A stretch of 64,000 nucleotides of DNA from Owenia fusiformis. Taxonomy: Eukaryota; Annelida; Polychaeta; Sabellida; Oweniidae. The stretch covers positions 25,186,455 to 25,250,454 of the forward strand of contig CAIIXF020000002.1 of the NCBI GenBank assembly GCA_903813345.2. Reading direction: 5' to 3'. A program made the translations under genes and the position numbers. Under the pieces are notes generated by a model. That model saw only the letters and a list, made by a program, of their open reading frames with translations. It did no database searches and was not told the origin of the DNA. The first letter of the stretch is position 1. Each line of letters begins with the position of its first letter. Positions 27,643 through 46,400 of the stretch are shown here, piece after piece.

Positions 27643-30017
27643 TCAGACATTCGCAACAGTCATACCCAGAAGTTCTGGTATATACATAAACATGGTATTT
27701 TCAAATTGAGTCACGTCCAAGTTGGGATTTACCTCATTAAATTGTTTTGCATATATATAATATTTGATTGCTAGTGATAGCCTGTTTAGCAAAGTGTTTT
27801 CATTATTTACAGATCTTCCGAACACCATATCATAGGCATTAAAATTAAGATTTACATTGAATAATTTCCCCAAATTCCCTTTAATAGCTTTCAAAAAAAT
27901 CTGAACCCGCCTACATTCCCAAAACTTGTGCTTTAAAGTGTCTCTTAATGGACAGTAACTACATCTAGCATCCTGTTTAATTCCTATCTGCGTTAAGTAA
28001 GCATTTGTGGTACAAATACCATGTAGAATCTTAAATTGAAGTTGTCGAATTTTATTTTGTTTCGTACAGCTATAAGCCATTTTAAAATAATCTATTCTTC
28101 CTAACTCACGATCATGTTCATTTTTATATAGTGGTTCCAAATATTTGTTTCTATTTAATATTTTTTGAATTGACTTCACTGTTAAACCATTCAATGACAC
28201 TGGTTTTTCGCCAAGTGTTAAATGCACAAGATCCGTTTGTAGGCTCGGTTCAAAAACTGAAGTTAAGTCTCGCTTCAATAAACGTTTCCACTCCTTCGGT
28301 ACAGCTGATATTATAGCATAATAATCAATAAAATTAATTTGTACGTTGTATTTTGCCTTAAAATCATAATACTGTAAAAAATGTCCCTGGTCATTTAGGA
28401 GGTCATTTACGTAAACGACCCCATTATCCATAAGATGCTTATTTATGACCTCTTTGTTATTAATTAGGACAAATCTATTATTCCAGAGTATTTCACTTTT
28501 AACTTCAGAACTAGTTCTTGGAGCTTGCATATTCCTTATATCAGAGTAAATTTGTAAAATATTTGAGTAAAATTCTGGCACGTCGTGGGCTATTGTTTTA
28601 ATATCAAAATTACATTGTATAAAGAACCTTATTCCCCCAAGCGGTTTAAAGTACAATTCTGGGATATATTTCCAATGACTTTGTCGAGGTTCGATTAATC
28701 TTTTTAGCCATATCAGTTTAAGTGCTTTTTCCATTGAAAACATGTCAATCATTCTTAGACCACCCTCGTCGTAATCACCAATTAAAGTTCGTCTCTTAAC
28801 CTTTTCCGTTTTTCCACCCCATAGGAATGAATAAATTATCTGTTGTGCCTTTGTTAATATATCATTTGGGGTATTTGTCATTGACATGGAATATACCAGT
28901 TTAGAAATACCAAGCGTTTTGATTATCAGAACTCGACCATATAAAGTTAAATTTCTTCTTGACCACATTTTCAATACTTTTTGAAGCGAGTCTAATTTCT
29001 TCTCAAAGTTAACAAAATCATTTGATTTCTTATTATATGAGACACAAATTCCCAGAAATTTACTTGGATCTTTAACCCATTTTAAACCGTATAACTTATT
29101 CTCAGTTTTAGATCTTTCTGAACCAATATACATACATTCTGTCTTTTCTTTGTTAATACATAATCCAGAAATATCTTTAAATTCATCAAAAATGTTTAAA
29201 GCCAGTTTAAGAGATTCTTTGCTATCTACTGTCAGTGTTGTATCGTCAGCAAATAACTCGATCTTTTGCTCATTATTTCCCAAGCGGATCCCTTTAATAG
29301 TCTGATCTTGTCTAATTCTAATTGCCAGGACTTCTATCACTAAGATAAATGTCAAACAACTCAAGGGGTCCCCCTGCCTACATGATCTTTTAATGTCGAA
29401 CCAGCCAGTTGATCTATTATTATTCAAAACACAACTCTTTATATCTGTATAGAATAATTTTACCCATTTAATTAGTGTGTCCCCGAAATTAAAAAGTCTC
29501 AACACATGTTCTATATACTCGAATTCAACACTATCGTAGGCTTTAAAAAAATCGACCATGCAAATAATGCCTGGAATGCACTTTTTCTTAGAATATTCAA
29601 GAATATCCTCTAGGTACCGTATGTTTTCGCCAATAAAACGATCTTTGATAAAGGCTGTCTGGTCGGGCCCTATAAGTTTCGCCAAAATAACACTAATACG
29701 GAGCGCAATTGATTTAGATGCTATCTTATAGTCAATATTAAGTAACGTGATTGGGCGCCAATTTTTCAAAAACCAATGATTTTTGTCCCCCTTTGGTACT
29801 AACGAGATAATACCCTGTCTTTGACTTACTGAGAGGATACCCTTTTCAAATGACAAGTTTAGAGACTTAATAAGCATTTCATTGATTTCATTCCAAAAAC
29901 ATTTATACCACTCTGTACTCAACCCGTCACTTCCCGGGGTTTTTCTATTTTTAAATTTTTTCAAGGCCTTATAACATTCATCGACCCTCAGTAAACCTTC
30001 ACATGAAGCCTTTTCAT
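27643..30017 (-). pseudogene. LINE reverse transcriptase part of ORF2
   Basis: Open for more than 770 codons to a stop at 27643. In order: the RT entry motif KTPGSDGLSTEWYKCF, NWRPITLLNIDYKI, IGPDQTAFIKDR, the first catalytic Asp in MVDFFKAYDS, RQGDPLSCLTF, and the catalytic LFADDTTLTV box. A thumb/linker follows, then a C-terminal knuckle CSYC-x7-H-x4-C (CSYCPLRDTLKHKFWEC). These are the complete motifs of an L1/Tx1-clade RT. In this frame the reading continues upstream of 29964 (LLRVDECYKALKKFKNRK) to the frameshift near 30045, so it is the continuation of the endonuclease frame and not a separate gene. Confidence 0.9.
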
Positions 30018-30032
30018 GTTCATTTAACTTAT

Positions 30033-31348
30033 TTATGTTAAGATCTTTTGTGTGTCAGCTTTAGCCTTGGAGTCATAGAGATCTACATAGAATGCTTTAA
30101 TTTGGTTAAGTATTTCTGTCTCATCTGTCACCACATTACCATCAACATTTAATTCAGTTATAGTTTTCTTTGAATAGTTTGATTTCTCTAAGTTGAAGAA
30201 GTAGTGTGTGCTTTTTTCCCCTTTTTCTACCCAGTCAGATCTAGATCTCTCAATGGCCCCCTCTGCTTTATATTGATATATATCATTTAGTTTACATTTT
30301 GCATCGTCATATTCTCTACACGCTTTTTCATTCAAATAATCATCCTTAACTAGTTCAGAGTCCAGGCTTTCAATAATTTTCAACAACTTTATTTCCTCTC
30401 CCCGTAGTTCCCTTTGCTTTGAAAATTCAATAGTTTTTACTTTAATCTGATATTTCAAATATTCCCAAAATTGAATATCATCAGCGTTATTCAGAGTTGT
30501 TTTAGTTTTAGCGATGAGTTCCTTAATTAACTTTTGATATGCTTCATTTTCTATTAATTTGTTATTAATTTTCCAAAAACCCGGTCCTCCTTTGTGAGTG
30601 ACAGATGAGTTAATGCTTAACACAATACATTTATGATCGGACTTAATTGATGGCACTATTTTGCTTTCTGATTCTTTAACCATATGTCTTTTAATAAGCC
30701 ACATGTCAATTCGACTTTTACTGACAGAGTTTTGCATATTATCCTTAGCATAAGATTCGTATGTATACTGGATTTTTGTGGGATTTTGGTGTCTCCATAC
30801 GTCAATTAAGTCAAAACGATTCATATACTCAATCAAAGAATCTCTAGATAGGTCCTTTTGTTGACTTACTATAGCCCTAGAATATCTATCTACCTCTCTA
30901 TTTAACACTACATTAAAATCACCTCCAAATATGACATTATCAGATGCAAAATTCGTGGATACAATCACTGATAGTTCGTCAAATAATTCTTTCCTAGCAT
31001 TATCTAGGTTTGGAGCATATACATTAATCAGTGTATATTGTAGTCCACCAATTTCAATCTGTACTACAATAAATCTACCATCGAGGTCAGTTGTGTTTTT
31101 GACAACCTTACAATCAAAATTATCGTTAAACAATACAGCAACACCTCGTTCACCTCTTTTTCTACCGTGTGATAAGATAATATTTTTACCCCATTCATTT
31201 TTCCACTCATCCAAATCATTCTCACACGAATGTGTTTCCTGAAGAAAATAGATATCTTTCTTCAGTCGCTTAAGATACAAAAAGACACTCCGTCGTTTGA
31301 CGGCTTGACGTATACCCTTTGTATTCAGGCTACATAATGTAATGGTGT
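30033..31348 (-). pseudogene. LINE apurinic-type endonuclease part of ORF2
   Basis: An AP-endonuclease-like domain at the N-terminus of ORF2. Visible catalytic motifs are YFLQETHS (Glu), FGGDFNVVLN (Asp/Asn), SRIDMWLI and IKSDHKCIVL (Ser-Asp-His). It nicks target DNA to prime reverse transcription. The frame stops at 30033. The stop follows an A run (CACAAAAGATC) where adding one base restores the reverse-transcriptase frame, so a single-base deletion is the simplest explanation. The domain is nearly complete at its 5' end despite the truncation. Confidence 0.9.
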
Positions 31349-31351
31349 AAT

Positions 31352-31365
31352 GGTTTTTACAATAT
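31352..31365. repeat. target-site duplication, 5' copy
   Basis: GGTTTTTACAATAT, identical to 27523-27536, at the truncated 5' end of the LINE. Confidence 0.9.
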
Positions 31366-32111
31366 GGAGTTTAAGGTTGTATATAAAATCGAAACGCCAA
31401 CCTATACGTATGATCGATCGCCCATACAAATGCATCGCTTTAATATTATCCGTTCACGTTTAGGTTGTTATAAACATTGTAAGCTTAAACTCCCAAATAT
31501 CTTTCAACAATTAAGTATAGTTTTGGAAGTTTATTTTATACATAAAGTTGATAGCACAACATATTTAAAAGAGTAAGCATATAGTCGATTTTCTCGGTTA
31601 TGATCATCTACATATGTATCATAATTATACCATAATTAGATTTATGAAATTATAAACAGTTTTGTCAGGGAGAATAGGTTATTAGTACAATAAATATAAA
31701 GGTAAGGTCAACTCTGGTAAGATTGATCGGTCCCCAATCAGAGACCACGTGACCAGTGACGTCACGCACAGCAGGTAACAAGTTGTAGGTCAGTTACCAA
31801 AAGAACTCCATTGAAGCAGGACGAAAAACCCACAAACCCTCCCTATAACCAACATGAAGAAGGTAAAGTCAATATCACTAATACTAGCGTAAGTGAAATA
31901 CAATATAACAGGTGCATCACACACCTTTATTTAATATAAAATGATTAATAATTACTCATCATTATAGCTAATTAAAGGAGATATATATACAATATATGAA
32001 TACTAATCCTTTAATTGAGCTAATTAAATATATATTTGTTGTACTAATTAGGCTCCCAGAAGGCAAAACTGTTGAAATCCGAATAAATACCTGTACTATA
32101 TCTACAGTGTA
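31366..32111. other. non-coding sequence
   Basis: No supported gene. Contains the CACGTG/TGACGTCA pair near 31746-31762. Confidence 0.4.
31744..31764. promoter_or_regulatory. E-box plus CRE motif pair
   Basis: ACCACGTGACC followed within a few bases by the palindromic TGACGTCAC, matching bHLH (USF-type) and CREB/ATF consensus sites. No transcription start or first exon is evident nearby, so the function is uncertain. Confidence 0.3.
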
Positions 32112-37400: not shown

Positions 37401-40400
37401 GTATAGTTGCCATAGCAACATGTATGCACGTTCTGCGGAGCAGTTTCCGTATATTATAAATGTTCAAACTTAGTTTAGAAAAGCAGTTATTCTGTGATAA
37501 TGTTTCAGGCTTTTAAATCATTGTTATGGTAATTGTATACAGTTGCATGATGTCATAGTGGTTTAATATTATGTAATTTATCTCATTGTGACAGGATTAT
37601 CACTTTAATCTGATATTATGACATCACATGATGATGTCATATAGGGGTTCACAAAAGGAAAACTCTTAGGAACACAACCTAGGAATTTCCAGGGAGGTGT
37701 ACATTATGCCACCAACGTTGAGCAAAGATGAAAAATTAGAGCAGAGAGCAGTCATAAAATTCCTTCAGAAGACAGGGGGTAAACCCAGTGACACTATAAA
37801 GGAGTTTAAACAAGCATATGGTGAGAGAAGACTGTCCAACCCCACTGTGTATAGGTGGCATAAAAGATTCGGTTCACAATTGCGCCGCTCGGTTCAGTTG
37901 GCTCTGCAGGATATGTCCAACAGTGGTTTTGATCATGTCTTCCAATCCTGGCTGGAAAGGCACAGACAAATTGTCTCCAGCAAAGGACAGTATGTGGATA
38001 AGTGAATCAACAATGTACAATGCTCTTAAGGAATATCAGGAATAAAGTAGCAGCATTACAGTAGTGATGAGAACAGCAGAGAAACATATGAACATGAAAT
38101 GTTTTTCAAAAATGTATGAAAAACACACAGCTGCTCCGCAGAACGTGCGTACATGTTGCTATGACAACTATACATTGAATATATTTGTGTAAAGTAATAA
38201 ATGTAATATAGATTTTATATATTTTAGAGCATAATTATCATTACTTCTGGGACACCCTGTATGTATGGAAAATTACTAAACAATTTTTATGCCTAATATA
38301 ATTTAACAAATCCAAACAGTTTCTTACATTTTCTTATGACTTGTACCTCCTCTAGACTAGTTGTACCATTTACAGTAACATTCTTCATCACTGCGTCCTT
38401 GCAATGTTTCACAAGTTTAACGTCCTCTGCCAAAACTTCTCCTGTTGAAATTTTCGTGATAGCTTTACTATCGATCTGTAACAAATAAAACAATTGAGCT
38501 TGATTAATAAGTGAGACTTCTTTCTTTGTATAAAAATGAGAAAAATAGATGTTTGTATCTCGCAACTCTGTAAGTTCAAGCTTGATACTTTCAAGCGGGA
38601 ATAAATACTATCTATGAGCTAGATGGATACTATCTATATCGGGGGCAAAAAGAAATATTCACCCAGATCCCAAACATTTAAATCTATGGAATCTTTGTTA
38701 TATATAACATAAATGTAATTGCACTTTATAATTAAGACATCGCATGCAAGTAAAAAGTCCCTGTACGATTAGCACAAAATGCATTCGGGGAAATGATATG
38801 TTCAAATAAGGGCTGTATATTATATTTCTATTTCAATTCAACCAACTGGATGAAATATCACATTAAATTCTAAGGTGTGTAAATGAGGAAAACAGCACTT
38901 AAAAATAATCTGATCGCGTATCTATGATTCATCATTCCACTCGAACCAAAGGAGTACAAGTACAACATAGGTCAAAGAATTCCCAGAAAAAGATTTTCCT
39001 GTAACAATAAAAGTACTTCATGACCAAGCCCTCGCGTTGTTTACTTTAATGTAAAGCGAACGATATATTTTAGGAAAATACACTTACGCTTATCACAAGT
39101 TTAGTAAATGGTTTGGTGATCACTTTCAGAAGTTCCTTGTTGACATCCTGTGCAGTTTCGATATGCAGGCTGTCTACAATTGACCTCGTCAACCAATATA
39201 GGGGACCTTTATAAACAAAATCATTCAAAATGTAACCTCCGTATAGGAGAAGGTGAGATGACTTGGTGTGACCAATTAATGAGTTCTAAAAGTAAATGTA
39301 GCATAATTGTCGTAATAAATTTCTTTTAGAGCAGTTCTAAACGGACTTTGGAGTGAATACATGTCACTTTAAGGGCTGCATTTAATTTTGGGAGCAAATT
39401 TTTGGATAAGTCACGTATGGTGAAGTCGGATAACTAATCTCATTATCATGATTATTTCGTCGCCACATTTCAGCGTCTTTTTATATTTATTTTTGATATA
39501 TATTTTTATTTATTTAATGATGTTTTAGATTACTTTTTGTCAAGTTTACACTGGCCTTGTGTTGACGTAATGGCACATCTTTGTGAAAAGGTCCGTGACA
39601 GTGTTATTATACTACAGGGTGGGCCAAAAAACGCCACTTTTTTCAAAATGCTATAACTTTTTTAATTTTTGATACAAAATCACAATTCACATACCAAATG
39701 AAACTTGAGGTTGTTATCTAGACATTGATCATGAATTATACACTTTTACTTGAATAAAATATGTCACCAGCGTCTCACTTAAACACGTGGTGTGCCATGA
39801 GAAATAAGCATAATTTGCATAATGTTCCTAAACTGATACGCCCTGATGACCGCAAGCTAATAGCCTTTATTCAAACCTAAGTGAGTATAGGGCATGGGGA
39901 GGTCTCCAGGAGATGGTATGAAGGCACCCGATCTAAAAAATTGCTTAACTAAAGCTGGCAATTAAGACACATTGAAAAAATATAGCTACATTTTATTGAT
40001 ACTGCTATATCAGCAAGGCGACTAAAACTAAAATCTATCATCAAATGGGATGGCGGACCAATTGAACTCCTCTTTTTAGATCAAATATAATCCCAGTTGA
40101 AGGACTCGTTACATTATATTATTACTAAGAACCCTTGGCACTATATAACTGCAAAATTTGGGGTATGTAGGTTGGAAAATAAAAAAGTTATAGTGTCTTG
40201 AAAAAAAGTGGCGTTTTTTGGCCCACCCTGTATATTAGATGTCAGGTGACTAATGTCATTATCATTGTCATTCCCCGACACTTCAGGGTGTTTTTATATT
40301 TATCTCTTTTTTGTTACATTTTTTATTTATTTGATGATGTTTTTGATACTTTCCGAGAGTCAAGTTTATGCTGACCTTGTGTTGACGCAATGTCACTTTT

Positions 40401-43400
40401 TTGAAAAGCTCTGTAAATGAAAATGTTGTAAAAAGCTTAATTTAGATATCGTGTGACTTAAACTATCTATGTCATTTTACGACACTCCGGGGTCTCTTTA
40501 TATTTATCTCTTAATTTTTGTTAAACTTTTAGTTATTTGATGATGTTTTTGGTTACGTCAATTTTATGCTGACCTTGGGTTGAAGTAATATCACATTTTT
40601 GTGAAAAGCTCTGTAAATGAAAATGATGTACTACGTTTATATTTAGATATCAGGTGACTTAAATGTCCCCATCTTCGTCATTTTACGATACTTCGTTGTC
40701 TTTTCACATTTATCTGTTTTTGGTTACGTCAAGTTTATGCTGACCTTGGGTTGACGTAATGCAACCTCTTTGTGAAAAGCTCTGCAATTGACAGCGTTAT
40801 TATACTATATAATTATATCAATATGCTTCGATTGCTTCGATATATTTACCATCTCATGAGAAAGTCAAACTAACACTGAATGAACACTCGAGGATCACAA
40901 GTGAAATCTATGTCAAGCACTTATTTGTTTTCAATTGCGTTTTATTTTGTTTTCGCACAACAATTCAAACGGATATAACCAAAGCATAAAGATATTTATT
41001 CAGTTTACCTTCATTATATTTCGTAGGTTTTTCTCTTTCAAAATGTAGCAAAATAGTAGCAAAATACTAGTGTTGCCATGAGTGAACATGAACTTAAAAT
41101 GAACTTATTTGCTTAGCATTTAAAATGTACTAGTATTTGAAAAAGGTAATTAAATTACTAAAACCATGACTTGATTCTAGTTGTAGCAGTAAAGTAGTTG
41201 TTACCTTCATGTACATACGCACATTAATATGTGTACATTAATTTTATATTAATTCTATTTGATTCTAAAAGTAGTTGTTACCTTCATGTACATACGCACA
41301 TTAATATATGTACATTAACTTTATATTAATTCTATTTGATTCTAAAAGTAGTTGTTACCTTCATTTGCATACGCACATTAATATATGTACATTAATTTTA
41401 TATTAACTCTATTTGATTTTAAAAGTAGTTGTTACCTCCATGTGCATACGCACATTAATATATGTACATTAATTTTATATTAACTCTATTTGATTCTAAA
41501 AGTAGTTGTTACCTTCATGTACATACGCACATTAATATTGTACATTAATTTTATATTAATTCTATTTGATTCTAACAGTAGTTGTTACCTCCATGTGCAT
41601 ACGCACATTAATATATTAAGTACATTAATTAACTCTATTTGATTCTAAAAATAGTTGTTACCTCCATGTGCATATGGCTCAAACGCAGCACATATCGCCT
41701 CAATTGGTAGAAGGCAAAATACAGTGAGCCAATTAAACATGTCGTGGACTGTGGCACCTCCAAAAGCTCTCCTAAAAAATATAAATAAACATTTATCATT
41801 GTGACGGAGCTTGATTCACAAAGGGTACTTTTTACTTTTTAAACTTCTGCAATTTTCTATATATCCCTTAGCAAAAGCGCATGGGTTTTTTCCATGCAAA
41901 GCACATGCAAAGTCCATGCAATCAGAAAAAATCCATGCAAGTCCATGCAATTGGCTTTGAAAGAGAAGGCTGAACAGAAAACCCATGCACTTATCCATGC
42001 AATGCCCATGCAAAGTCCATGCGAATGAAACTTTAAAAATTCCCCAAAATATATTTCCATGCAATCACCATGCAATTCACATGCAGCATGCAACTACCAT
42101 GCAAAGTCCATGCAACTGTTTTATTATAGAAAACTAAAATCCATGCAAGTACCATGCCATTTTGCATGTATGCGCATGAACTACTGAAATCCATGCAAGA
42201 ACCATGCAATATCAGACTGAATCCTAATTCCAAAACGAGGCTCATGCAGCCTCTCTTTCAATCAAAGCTGGCTTAGCCATTTTGGTTTTGGTAAGTCTTC
42301 ACAAAATCCTATAACATCGGCCCTGATGCAGTTTTACTCTATTTGATTTTGATGTCAACTTTACCATTAGGTATTAGTTGTGCATTTGTTCCAGTTTCAT
42401 CATCATTGTTCATTTAGTTATCCATTTTCTTAAGCTTTAAATTTCTTTTCAATATATCCATTGAATCTTTCTACCTTTTGTGCTTTGCCTGTTTGTTTTG
42501 ATCTTTTCACCTAGAATTCATTCTAATCTGAATCATGATGGCATTATATCCTGAGCTGTAATTCAATATGGGTCAGTTTATTTGTATAGGTTTTACATAG
42601 GACATATACATTCATTAACTCCTTGGAGAAAAAAGTTATTTGTAAAAGAATCTAGAAGCAAGAGAAGGAAGCAAGGCCCAATAAATTATATAGACCCATA
42701 TTTTATGGGGGGTTTTCTTGAAAAAATTGAATATGCAAAAGAGTGTCATTGTGACATCATAATTCAAGATGGTGGATTTGAACTTTTTACAAGACAGAAT
42801 TATTTTAGCATTTTTTGTTTAAAACTTCAATTTAAAAATCTGAGCAGAACTACTTGTATAGATCTTTAATGCTGATCATTCTGTGATATTTGTACTATAT
42901 AGCATAACTCCTACAAATACTTTTTAAAGCGCTTAGACAGAAAATTCCAGGAAAATCCATGGGAAAATAACTGGAAAATAACATGGGATTTTTGTTTTTG
43001 TAATTTTTTGCAATTCGTTATGCTTTAGACCCCCTGTATCTTCATTAATATTATTCTCTAATCACAGTGCTTCAAAATTCAGAATATCTTTGCATTCACT
43101 CCCCCTGCGATAAGCAGTTAGCATTTCGCCAATTAAGCATTAGGTGAACTATGTGAACTAACTGTAAATTAAGTTTAAAATCTGACCAATCAGAATGTGC
43201 TCTTGATGTAAATTGGATGTATCCTAAAGTGTAAACTGAGTGTAAACTTAGGTGTAAATTAGCTCGTTTGCATGTGAAATTGGTCACCTATTTACTGGGT
43301 GTAAAGTAAGTGTAAACTGAGTGTAAACTTAAGTGAAAACTAAGTGCGAACTGGATGTAAAGTAGATGTAAACTTAAGTGTAAAGTGGGTGTATACTAAG

Positions 43401-46400
43401 GTGTAAACTGAGTGTAAATTAAAGTGTAAATTAGCTCATTTGCATATGAAATTGGTGGTGACATTTGTCAGCTTAAATGCCTTATTATAAATGTTGCATT
43501 TAGAAGACTTCTGATCACATGGCATCCTTGACCTAATGTGCAGCAGATGAAGCAGTACTATTATTAATTCTCACAATCTAAAACAGGTGCTCCTTGATTG
43601 ATTGACATTGTCAGTAAGGTTGATACTAGTATACGAATTGTATATTACGGGCAGAACAGCAGATGCATGGATGTAACATGAACCATACAAGTCCATGCAA
43701 AATTGCATGTGGATTGCATGGTTTTCGTTAAAACCCATGCAGATGCATTCAATTTTGCATGTGGATTAACGTGCTTTGCATGGATTTGAATGGGTGCCGC
43801 ATGGACTTTGCATGGATTTGAATGGATTTTGCATGGACTTTGCATGGATTTGAATGGATGTTGTATGGATCATGCGAGTCCATGCAATATTGCATGCATG
43901 TGGATTGCATGGTTTTCATATAAATCCATGCAGATGCATGCAATTTTGCATGGACATTGCATGGAACTTATTAACAATATTTCTCGCAGCCTGCATGGAC
44001 TTTGCATGTGGATTAACGTGCTTTGCATGGATTTGAATGGATGTCGCATGGACTTTGCATGGATTTGAATGGATGTTGCATGGACTTTGCATGGATTTGA
44101 ATGGATGTTGCATGGTTTTTTTAAATGAGTTAAAATTCTGCTGCATGTGTTTTGCATTGATATTGCATGGAAAAATCGCATGGACTTTGCATGCATGCGG
44201 TTTTGCTAAGGGATGTATGACGCTCAAGTTGACTTTGGCCAAACTGCCCTAATACGTCACTTCCGCTGAGAAAAAAGTAGTTTTAAAAAATTAATGTAGT
44301 CCCAACACAATTGTGATCATGACGAGTCAGTAAGCTAGTATGTAGGTACAGTTGTCATCTTTTTGCAATGTTAACATGCCATTTATTCTGAAAATGCGTT
44401 TATTTGGGTTATCTGAAGGAAAATTTCGAGTCAAGTGGCGTATTAATTTTGCCTTCATTTTTGTGAATTTCAATTTCTGTCGGCAGAGAGAGGGGGTAGT
44501 GTCACAATTGACCAATTATTTCAAAAAGTATATGTTTGGCCCCTATTGAGTTTAGTGTCAAAATGTAGATTAGACATAGCTTTAGAACCTCAGATAGGTC
44601 AGTGAGGCCACATAAAGCCATGACTCGAGATAAAAAGTCAGGCGTTTGGGCTTTTGCCCATTGACTAGTATGGTGACGTGAATTAGGGCTGTTTTGCCTA
44701 TGGAACAAGTCAGATATTGACATGTCGCGGGTCTCGCCCTCTTGGGGACTTCAGAGGTCATAGAGTTCAAAATAAAAACCATAAAAATAACAACAGACAC
44801 TTCAATCTATTTGTTTAGTGTCTGAGGTTCTGTGGACCACTATAACTAAAATGTCATCGTGTATAGCAAAATGTCGAACATACTTGTAAAAATCAATATC
44901 TGGACACCAGAACAGTATTATGCTGGTGTTTATATTTATGAGCGTCCAAATGGAGGGGTTGCGTTGGATGCGATCGCACTACCCTCAGCACAGTAAGCTT
45001 TCTTAAGAAGTGAGGTCGAACGAATTCAAAGGGTATGACCGCACACACATTTTGAGTCAAATTTTGACTTACTTACTTTCCCCGGTCAAGTTATTTCGTT
45101 CATGGTGCTGGAGAGGAAGAGACTCAGATGAACTATGCCCAGGCGAAATATGTAAAGTTCTTCGGTGTCGATCGGGACAAACATTGACAATGCAGAATGT
45201 TTGATTTTGTAATTGTTGACTCCCAACAGTAATATTGCATCATCAAGTGTTCATAAAGTATAGATGTCAAGATCAAATGCGAAAAAGCAAACAAACTTAC
45301 TAAATCCCAGTGTGTTGTACTTGTACAAGGAGTTCGGGCCATTTGGCGAATTGTTTATTCAAATGATCATAGGGTGTGTACAATACGAGAACCCCTTCCG
45401 TAATCTTACTTACTCTTCTACTTATTACCTGAACTCGTTCACTTCCGTAATCTGCCCCATCGACACGATCGTATTTGTCACTGATGTACCAATATTTGCG
45501 CCCATTATAATTGGAATAGCCGTCTGCACATCAAGAACTGCAAAATAATTTTGCGACCATTTTTCAACCATGCAAAAAGTGTCAGTTGCCTGTCTTTTAA
45601 ATTACTTTGATTTTAATTTAATATTGCACCAGGCCTCTGATCTCACCCATCTTCGTTCACTCGGCCCACGTCGGTGAACGCAGTGAAGACCGAGTGTGCG
45701 AAGATGGATCTCACCCCTATTATCAAGACAAGGTTAGATTTATCAATAGGAGAAAACTGCATTTGTGATTCATAGTCTCTACTGTTTGTTGAACTCAAGA
45801 GAATGAGAGACTCAGATAAATCTTAAACTTCTTAATTAATCGAACGGTTTTTAACGCATGCGTGAATTTTTGAAAAGTTTTTGGATGATATATTTTAAAC
45901 AAACAACCATAACGTCGATAACATAAAACAGTGACTTATGACTATATTTCAGAGCTTCCTGGTGGTGAGGTAGAATATGTAATACGTACTGCTTTCAGCC
46001 ACCATCGTTACTATGATAGAGGTGGTAGTCGATGAGCTTTGAAGGAGGACAGTTCCCAGAACTCCTAACATCAGTCCGCATACTGGATTTCGTAGCAAAG
46101 AATTCTGGGAAAAAACTTGTCCGGCTGATTTTCCTAAAAACGCCAACAATGATAAGTGTGAGTGCATGCTGGAGTAGCGTTACTAGGAAACGAAATTCGT
46201 AGAAAGTGAAATATCTGGTGACTAAGTAACGTCTGTATAAAAATGCATTTCGTATTTTATTTGAATTGATGACTTTACATGTAGGCCTACTCTGGAAGAT
46301 CAACTACATTGAATGATAAGATCACAAACCCAGCCTCGAAAATGTTTAAATGTCATAAGTTGTTTCATCTAATTTAAATATAGTTACATATGAATCACAT

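What the first reader, a model, noticed from the sequence alone, without database searches (positions are those of the whole stretch)
41190..41771. Tandem array has copied an SLC34 splice donor about six extra times
Exon 6 ends CATGGAG|GTAACAAC on the minus strand. The adjacent array of 77-bp units repeats CATGNAG|GTAACAAC with its surroundings, so the real donor is followed by six donor-like copies at near-exact 77-bp spacing. The array appears to have grown from the exon edge outward. This could permit 3'-extended exon 6 isoforms, act as a splicing decoy, or vary between individuals.
Basis: seen in the sequence. Interest (0 to 1): 0.7.

Follow-up and report, generated by a model that had tools for sequence, protein, structure and literature searches.

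The report
Minisatellite copying an exon's splice donor
In one animal phosphate-transporter gene, a 77-base tandem repeat overlaps the end of a coding exon, so six look-alike splice sites follow the real one; using any of them would end the protein early, and a working version of this arrangement is already known in a human gene.

Summary
On the minus strand, exon 6 (41771-41662) of an SLC34-type Na/Pi cotransporter gene ends at a donor, CATGGAG|GTAACAAC. That donor is the first of seven near-identical ones, at 41662, 41589, 41513, 41436, 41359, 41282 and 41205 (steps 73, 76, 77, 77, 77, 77), in a 93%-matched minisatellite found only at this locus. The array takes in the last 13 nt of the exon. 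All six copies share AG|GTAACAACTA with the real donor and score the same as it, so they are not degraded sites.

The functional reading is weaker. Every 3'-extended exon 6 meets the same in-frame TAG 15-17 nt into the intron (...AHGGNNYF*), so no extended isoform can make the full transporter. The donor columns are not significantly more conserved than the rest of the unit. The 'exon edge outward' direction is unresolved: the exon's last 27 nt (AAFEPYAHG) are an in-frame excess absent from two paralogues, zebrafish Slc34a2a and the family profile, so the exon end is itself derived.

I take this to be a passive minisatellite that overlapped a splice site, with at most NMD-bound mis-splicing. 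Human IFI6/G1P3 is a published precedent for a minisatellite supplying multiple splice donors. No transcript data were available.

The parts
41662..41771 (-). exon 6 of the SLC34-type gene (110 nt; acceptor TTTTTTAG|GAGAGC, donor CATGGAG|GTAACAAC, leaves phase 1)
   Evidence: protein [37 protein letters not shown] matches SLC34A2a 9z60 and TIGR01013
41662..41688 (-). 27-nt in-frame excess at the exon 6 end (AAFEPYAHG) absent from paralogues, zebrafish Slc34a2a and the family profile; placement within the exon end is ambiguous to a few codons
41191..41674 (-). 77-bp minisatellite, 6 full units plus a seventh partial one; overlaps the last 13 nt of exon 6
41602..41674 (-). unit 0 (73 bp): 13 nt of exon plus real donor at 41662|41661
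41526..41601 (-). unit 1 (76 bp), donor copy 41589|41588, GAG|GTAACA
41449..41525 (-). unit 2, donor copy 41513|41512, AAG|GTAACA
41372..41448 (-). unit 3, donor copy 41436|41435, GAG|GTAACA
41295..41371 (-). unit 4, donor copy 41359|41358, AAG|GTAACA
41218..41294 (-). unit 5, donor copy 41282|41281, AAG|GTAACA
41191..41217 (-). partial unit 6, donor copy 41205|41204, AAG|GTAACA
41645..41647 (-). in-frame TAG that terminates every 3'-extended exon 6 (...AHGGNNYF*)
   Evidence: translations; coordinates counted from the donor
39087..39206 (-). exon 7, acceptor TTTATAAAG|GTCCCC at the same position and phase as paralogue L008; a second in-frame acceptor lies 30 nt upstream (exon start 39236)

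Best explanation
A locus-private minisatellite formed by tandem duplication of a roughly 77-bp segment spanning the exon 6/intron 6 boundary, and later changed copy number by slippage or unequal exchange (inferred). Because the unit carries 13 nt of exon plus the start of the intron, each copy brings a donor identical at AG|GTAACAACTA (shown). The coding donor is the first one, 41662, because it alone gives an open frame into exon 7 at the conserved phase-1 intron position (shown). The six copies are passive passengers. If U1 uses one, exon 6 is lengthened by 73-457 nt, always including the TAG 15-17 nt past the real donor, so the mRNA is truncated and expected to go to NMD (frame shown, decay inferred). 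Exon context probably favours the first donor (inferred).
For: Array and donor copies. One locus in a 498-Mb assembly. Unit divergence of only 2-5 differences per pair, as in a young homogenised array. Equal donor scores: U1 duplex -6.6 versus -6.6/-6.5 kcal/mol, human-like PWM 5.88 versus 5.88/6.76. The same premature stop in all six extensions. Donor columns 0/8 variable versus 18/80 overall, P=0.12, so no significant sign of selection on the copies. Phase and position of intron 6 match paralogue L008. No array at the homologous boundary of either paralogue.
Against: No RNA evidence. Six donors of equal strength downstream of a donor weaker than 13 of 18 others in three sister genes might be expected to be used at some rate, and perfect retention of GTAACAAC in all copies is compatible with, though not evidence for, function.
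Confidence: 0.66

Rival explanations
1. Poison-exon regulation: the donor copies compete with 41662 and send a regulated share of transcripts to NMD, so array length tunes transporter output.
For: Equal-strength donors; every extension carries a PTC; the real donor is rather weak. In human IFI6/G1P3, downstream repeat units of a minisatellite are used as donors (PMC4526556, citing Turri et al. 1995).
Against: No transcript data; no significant excess conservation of donor columns; private to this gene copy and absent at the paralogues' boundary. Predicted accessibility of the copies (0.016-0.054) is no higher than that of the real donor (0.075).
Confidence: 0.12
2. Donor capture: the array arose first inside intron 6; the ancestral donor, about 27 nt upstream as in paralogue L008, was lost, and splicing moved to the first array unit, adding nine codons. 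The array then gave the exon its donor, not the reverse.
For: The exon end has a 27-nt in-frame excess against two paralogues, zebrafish Slc34a2a and TIGR01013, whose last 13 nt are array sequence. Paralogue L009 also shows a shifted intron 13 nt away, so this boundary is mobile.
Against: The excess could equally be an insertion within the exon before the array formed. The upstream half of the tail has no detectable array homology. No outgroup sequence of this gene was available.
Confidence: 0.2
3. Assembly artefact or chance resemblance.
For: None found; only a single assembly is held.
Against: Copies carry distinct substitutions and indels; 7 motif hits in the array versus 0.63 expected in the whole window.
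Confidence: 0.02

Closest known systems
Human IFI6 (G1P3, 6-16) minisatellite with multiple splice donors (Turri, Cuin & Porter 1995, cited in PMC4526556 and PMC2915984; original not held)
   Same: A tandem repeat supplies several splice donor sites at the end of a coding exon, with downstream repeat units serving as donors.
   Different: IFI6 transcripts using two downstream repeat donors are documented and encode isoforms. Here the unit is 77 bp, the first step is 73 nt (frame-changing), and an in-frame stop in the first unit prevents any extended protein; use is unknown.
Near intron pairs from intron sliding, or intron gain by tandem duplication of AG|GT proto-splice sites (Lehmann et al. 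2010, PMC2891723; potato RdRp case PMC4974935)
   Same: Tandem duplication across a splice signal and a displaced intron boundary relative to relatives.
   Different: No new intron is created; only donors are multiplied and no acceptor function is evident.
Canine LHX3 intron 5 repeat (PMC3223203)
   Same: An intronic tandem repeat whose copy number affects splicing.
   Different: It acts through donor-to-branch distance, not by multiplying donors.

Membership tests
SLC34 (NaPi-II) cotransporter gene | Two Na_Pi_cotrans repeats and match to the SLC34/TIGR01013 profile | tested here: met
   PF02690 over cut-off in both halves; TIGR01013 E 4.7e-55 on the last exon, below the whole-protein cut-off because only one exon was scanned; 9z60 Slc34a2a E 2e-66
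Minisatellite | Head-to-tail units of about 10-100 bp with high identity | tested here: met
   TRF period 77, 6.4 copies, 93% matches
Minisatellite supplying multiple splice donors (IFI6-like) | Each unit contains a donor motif as good as the authentic one, array starts at the exon end | tested here: met
Minisatellite supplying multiple splice donors (IFI6-like) | Donors in downstream units are used in transcripts | not testable with these tools
   no RNA data; all extensions carry a PTC
Minisatellite supplying multiple splice donors (IFI6-like) | Extended isoforms encode in-frame protein (a feature of the IFI6 case, not of the kind as such) | tested here: not met
   stop after GGNNYF in all six
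Intron gain by tandem duplication (proto-splice site) | Duplicated AG|GT acts as both acceptor and donor, giving a new intron | not tested
   the sequence upstream of each AG|GT shows no pyrimidine tract by eye; not scored

The most novel reading that the evidence does not exclude
The exon now ends inside the repeat because splicing moved onto a donor born in an intronic minisatellite, adding nine codons to a phosphate transporter: a natural case of exon-boundary capture by tandem repeats, with six spare donors still in place.
Probability: 0.2. Interest if true: 0.5.

Novelty: new member of a known kind. Interest (0 to 1): 0.27.

Why it matters
It is a natural test of how the spliceosome chooses among seven donors of equal sequence strength, and of whether tandem repeats can move exon boundaries. 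It is one locus, the copies are probably silent, and a better-documented human precedent exists.

Tried and rejected
1) Dispersed repeat or TE: the unit occurs only here in G000; the one other hit is 40 bp of AT-rich sequence in another gene's intron. 2) Array homology reaching further into the exon (ATGTGC): 66% of control windows score as well. 3) A decayed eighth unit at about 41082-41114: score 24, reached by 3.5% of unrelated windows. 4) Donor hairpins hiding the copies: local unpaired probability is low for all seven donors (0.016-0.075), highest for the real one, but too weak a model to explain donor choice. 5) Selection on donor copies: P=0.12. 6) An ancestral donor still present inside exon 6: no other GT in the exon scores above 2.5 on the human-like PWM, against 5.88 for the real donor. 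7) Orthologues from other species: no eukaryotic collection was available. 8) Naming the species through COX1: no match in the assembly.

Full report
WHAT IS THERE. The window lies in an animal-like genome assembly of 498 Mb; the species is not known to me. On the minus strand there is a gene of the SLC34 (NaPi-II) type. Its last exon matches zebrafish Slc34a2a 9z60 at E 2e-66 and TIGR01013 at E 4.7e-55, and both halves match PF02690. Directly over its end lies a 77-bp minisatellite, 41191-41674 (6.4 copies, 93% matches). Seven donors ATG[AG]AG|GTAACAACTA sit at 41662, 41589, 41513, 41436, 41359, 41282 and 41205, at steps 73, 76, 77, 77, 77, 77. Chance gives 0.63 such hits per window and at most 4 in 100 shuffles.

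WHICH DONOR IS REAL. Only 41662 leaves an open frame into exon 7. The downstream acceptor TTTATAAAG|GTCCCCTATATTGGTTGAC corresponds in position and phase to ttacttcag|GTTATCTGTACAGGCTGAC of a paralogue on contig C1 (L008), whose upstream exon ends GAAGTTCTCACAG|GT, also phase 1. A second acceptor 30 nt upstream also keeps frame; I could not decide whether it is used.

ARE THE COPIES GOOD DONORS. Yes, relative to the real one. Two copies are identical to it from -6 to +9; four differ by A for G at -3. U1 duplex energies are -6.6 (real), -6.6 and -6.5 kcal/mol; a human-like PWM typed from my own knowledge gives 5.88 and 6.76. A PWM from 18 homology-supported donors of this gene and two paralogues gives 6.29 for the real donor and 5.77 for the AAG copies, against a leave-one-out range of 3.9-11.4 for the 18; 13 of the 18 score higher than the real donor. 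All seven are on the weak side, with C at +5.

WHAT WOULD USE OF A COPY DO. Extensions of 73, 149, 226, 303, 380 and 457 nt all read ...AHGGNNYF*, because the first unit holds TAG in frame 15-17 nt after the real donor. With several exons downstream, NMD is expected from general knowledge. Extended protein isoforms of the whole transporter are therefore excluded; a regulatory poison extension is not.

ORIGIN. The unit was found at no other place in the assembly. Units differ from each other at 2-5 positions with no gradient. The left edge of homology lies 13 nt inside the exon. Against paralogue L008 (LLPLEVLTG|YLYRLT), paralogue L009 (LLPLELATRYLER|LTG), zebrafish Slc34a2a and TIGR01013, this gene has nine extra residues just before the junction (AAFEPYAHG). 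The exon end is thus derived, and its last 13 nt are array sequence. Two orders fit: the tail arose first and the boundary was then tandemly duplicated, or the array arose in the intron and its first donor was captured. I found no sequence signal that orders them; possible extra homology on both edges is at chance level.

FUNCTION. Donor columns are 0/8 variable against 18/80 overall, P=0.12, so no selection on the copies is shown. Neither paralogue has an array at the matching boundary. I commit to a passive minisatellite seeded at the exon boundary, with at most low-level, NMD-bound mis-splicing (0.66); the donor-capture order (0.2) shares the same passive present-day reading and differs only in history.

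KNOWN PARALLELS. PMC4526556 says of IFI6/G1P3 that two downstream repeat units serve as splice donor sites, giving three mRNAs, and cites Turri et al. [quoted passage not shown] Tandem duplication of AG|GT sites and sliding introns are described in PMC2891723. This is therefore a new instance of a known kind.

Noticed in passing
window 39613-40232: About 620-bp element in intron 6 with perfect 31-bp terminal inverted repeats TACAGGGTGGGCCAAAAAACGCCACTTTTTT, looks like a mariner-type MITE.
   Followed up: no
window 40231-40791: A second array (period about 200) in the same intron, also carrying a donor-like AAG|GTCAGCAT three times.
   Followed up: partly
window 41870-42260 and 43774-44119: Degenerate GCATGG-rich repeats in intron 5, so the 110-nt exon 6 is sandwiched between unrelated tandem arrays.
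   Followed up: no
L009 4110-4450 versus L008 5510-5800 (reverse strand numbering): The homologous intron sits 13 nt further downstream and in phase 2 in one SLC34 paralogue without change of protein length: a near-intron pair.
   Followed up: partly
window 45428-41772 and 35513-34436: This SLC34 gene has two introns (after NEFR and after ANFPG) that both paralogues lack.
   Followed up: no
window 27646-31370: Minus-strand LINE-like element with endonuclease (PF03372) and reverse transcriptase (PF00078) ORFs.
   Followed up: partly
window 39206 / 39236: Two in-frame acceptors 30 nt apart for exon 7; the upstream one has the better pyrimidine tract (0.71 versus 0.57) and would add ten residues.
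   Followed up: partly
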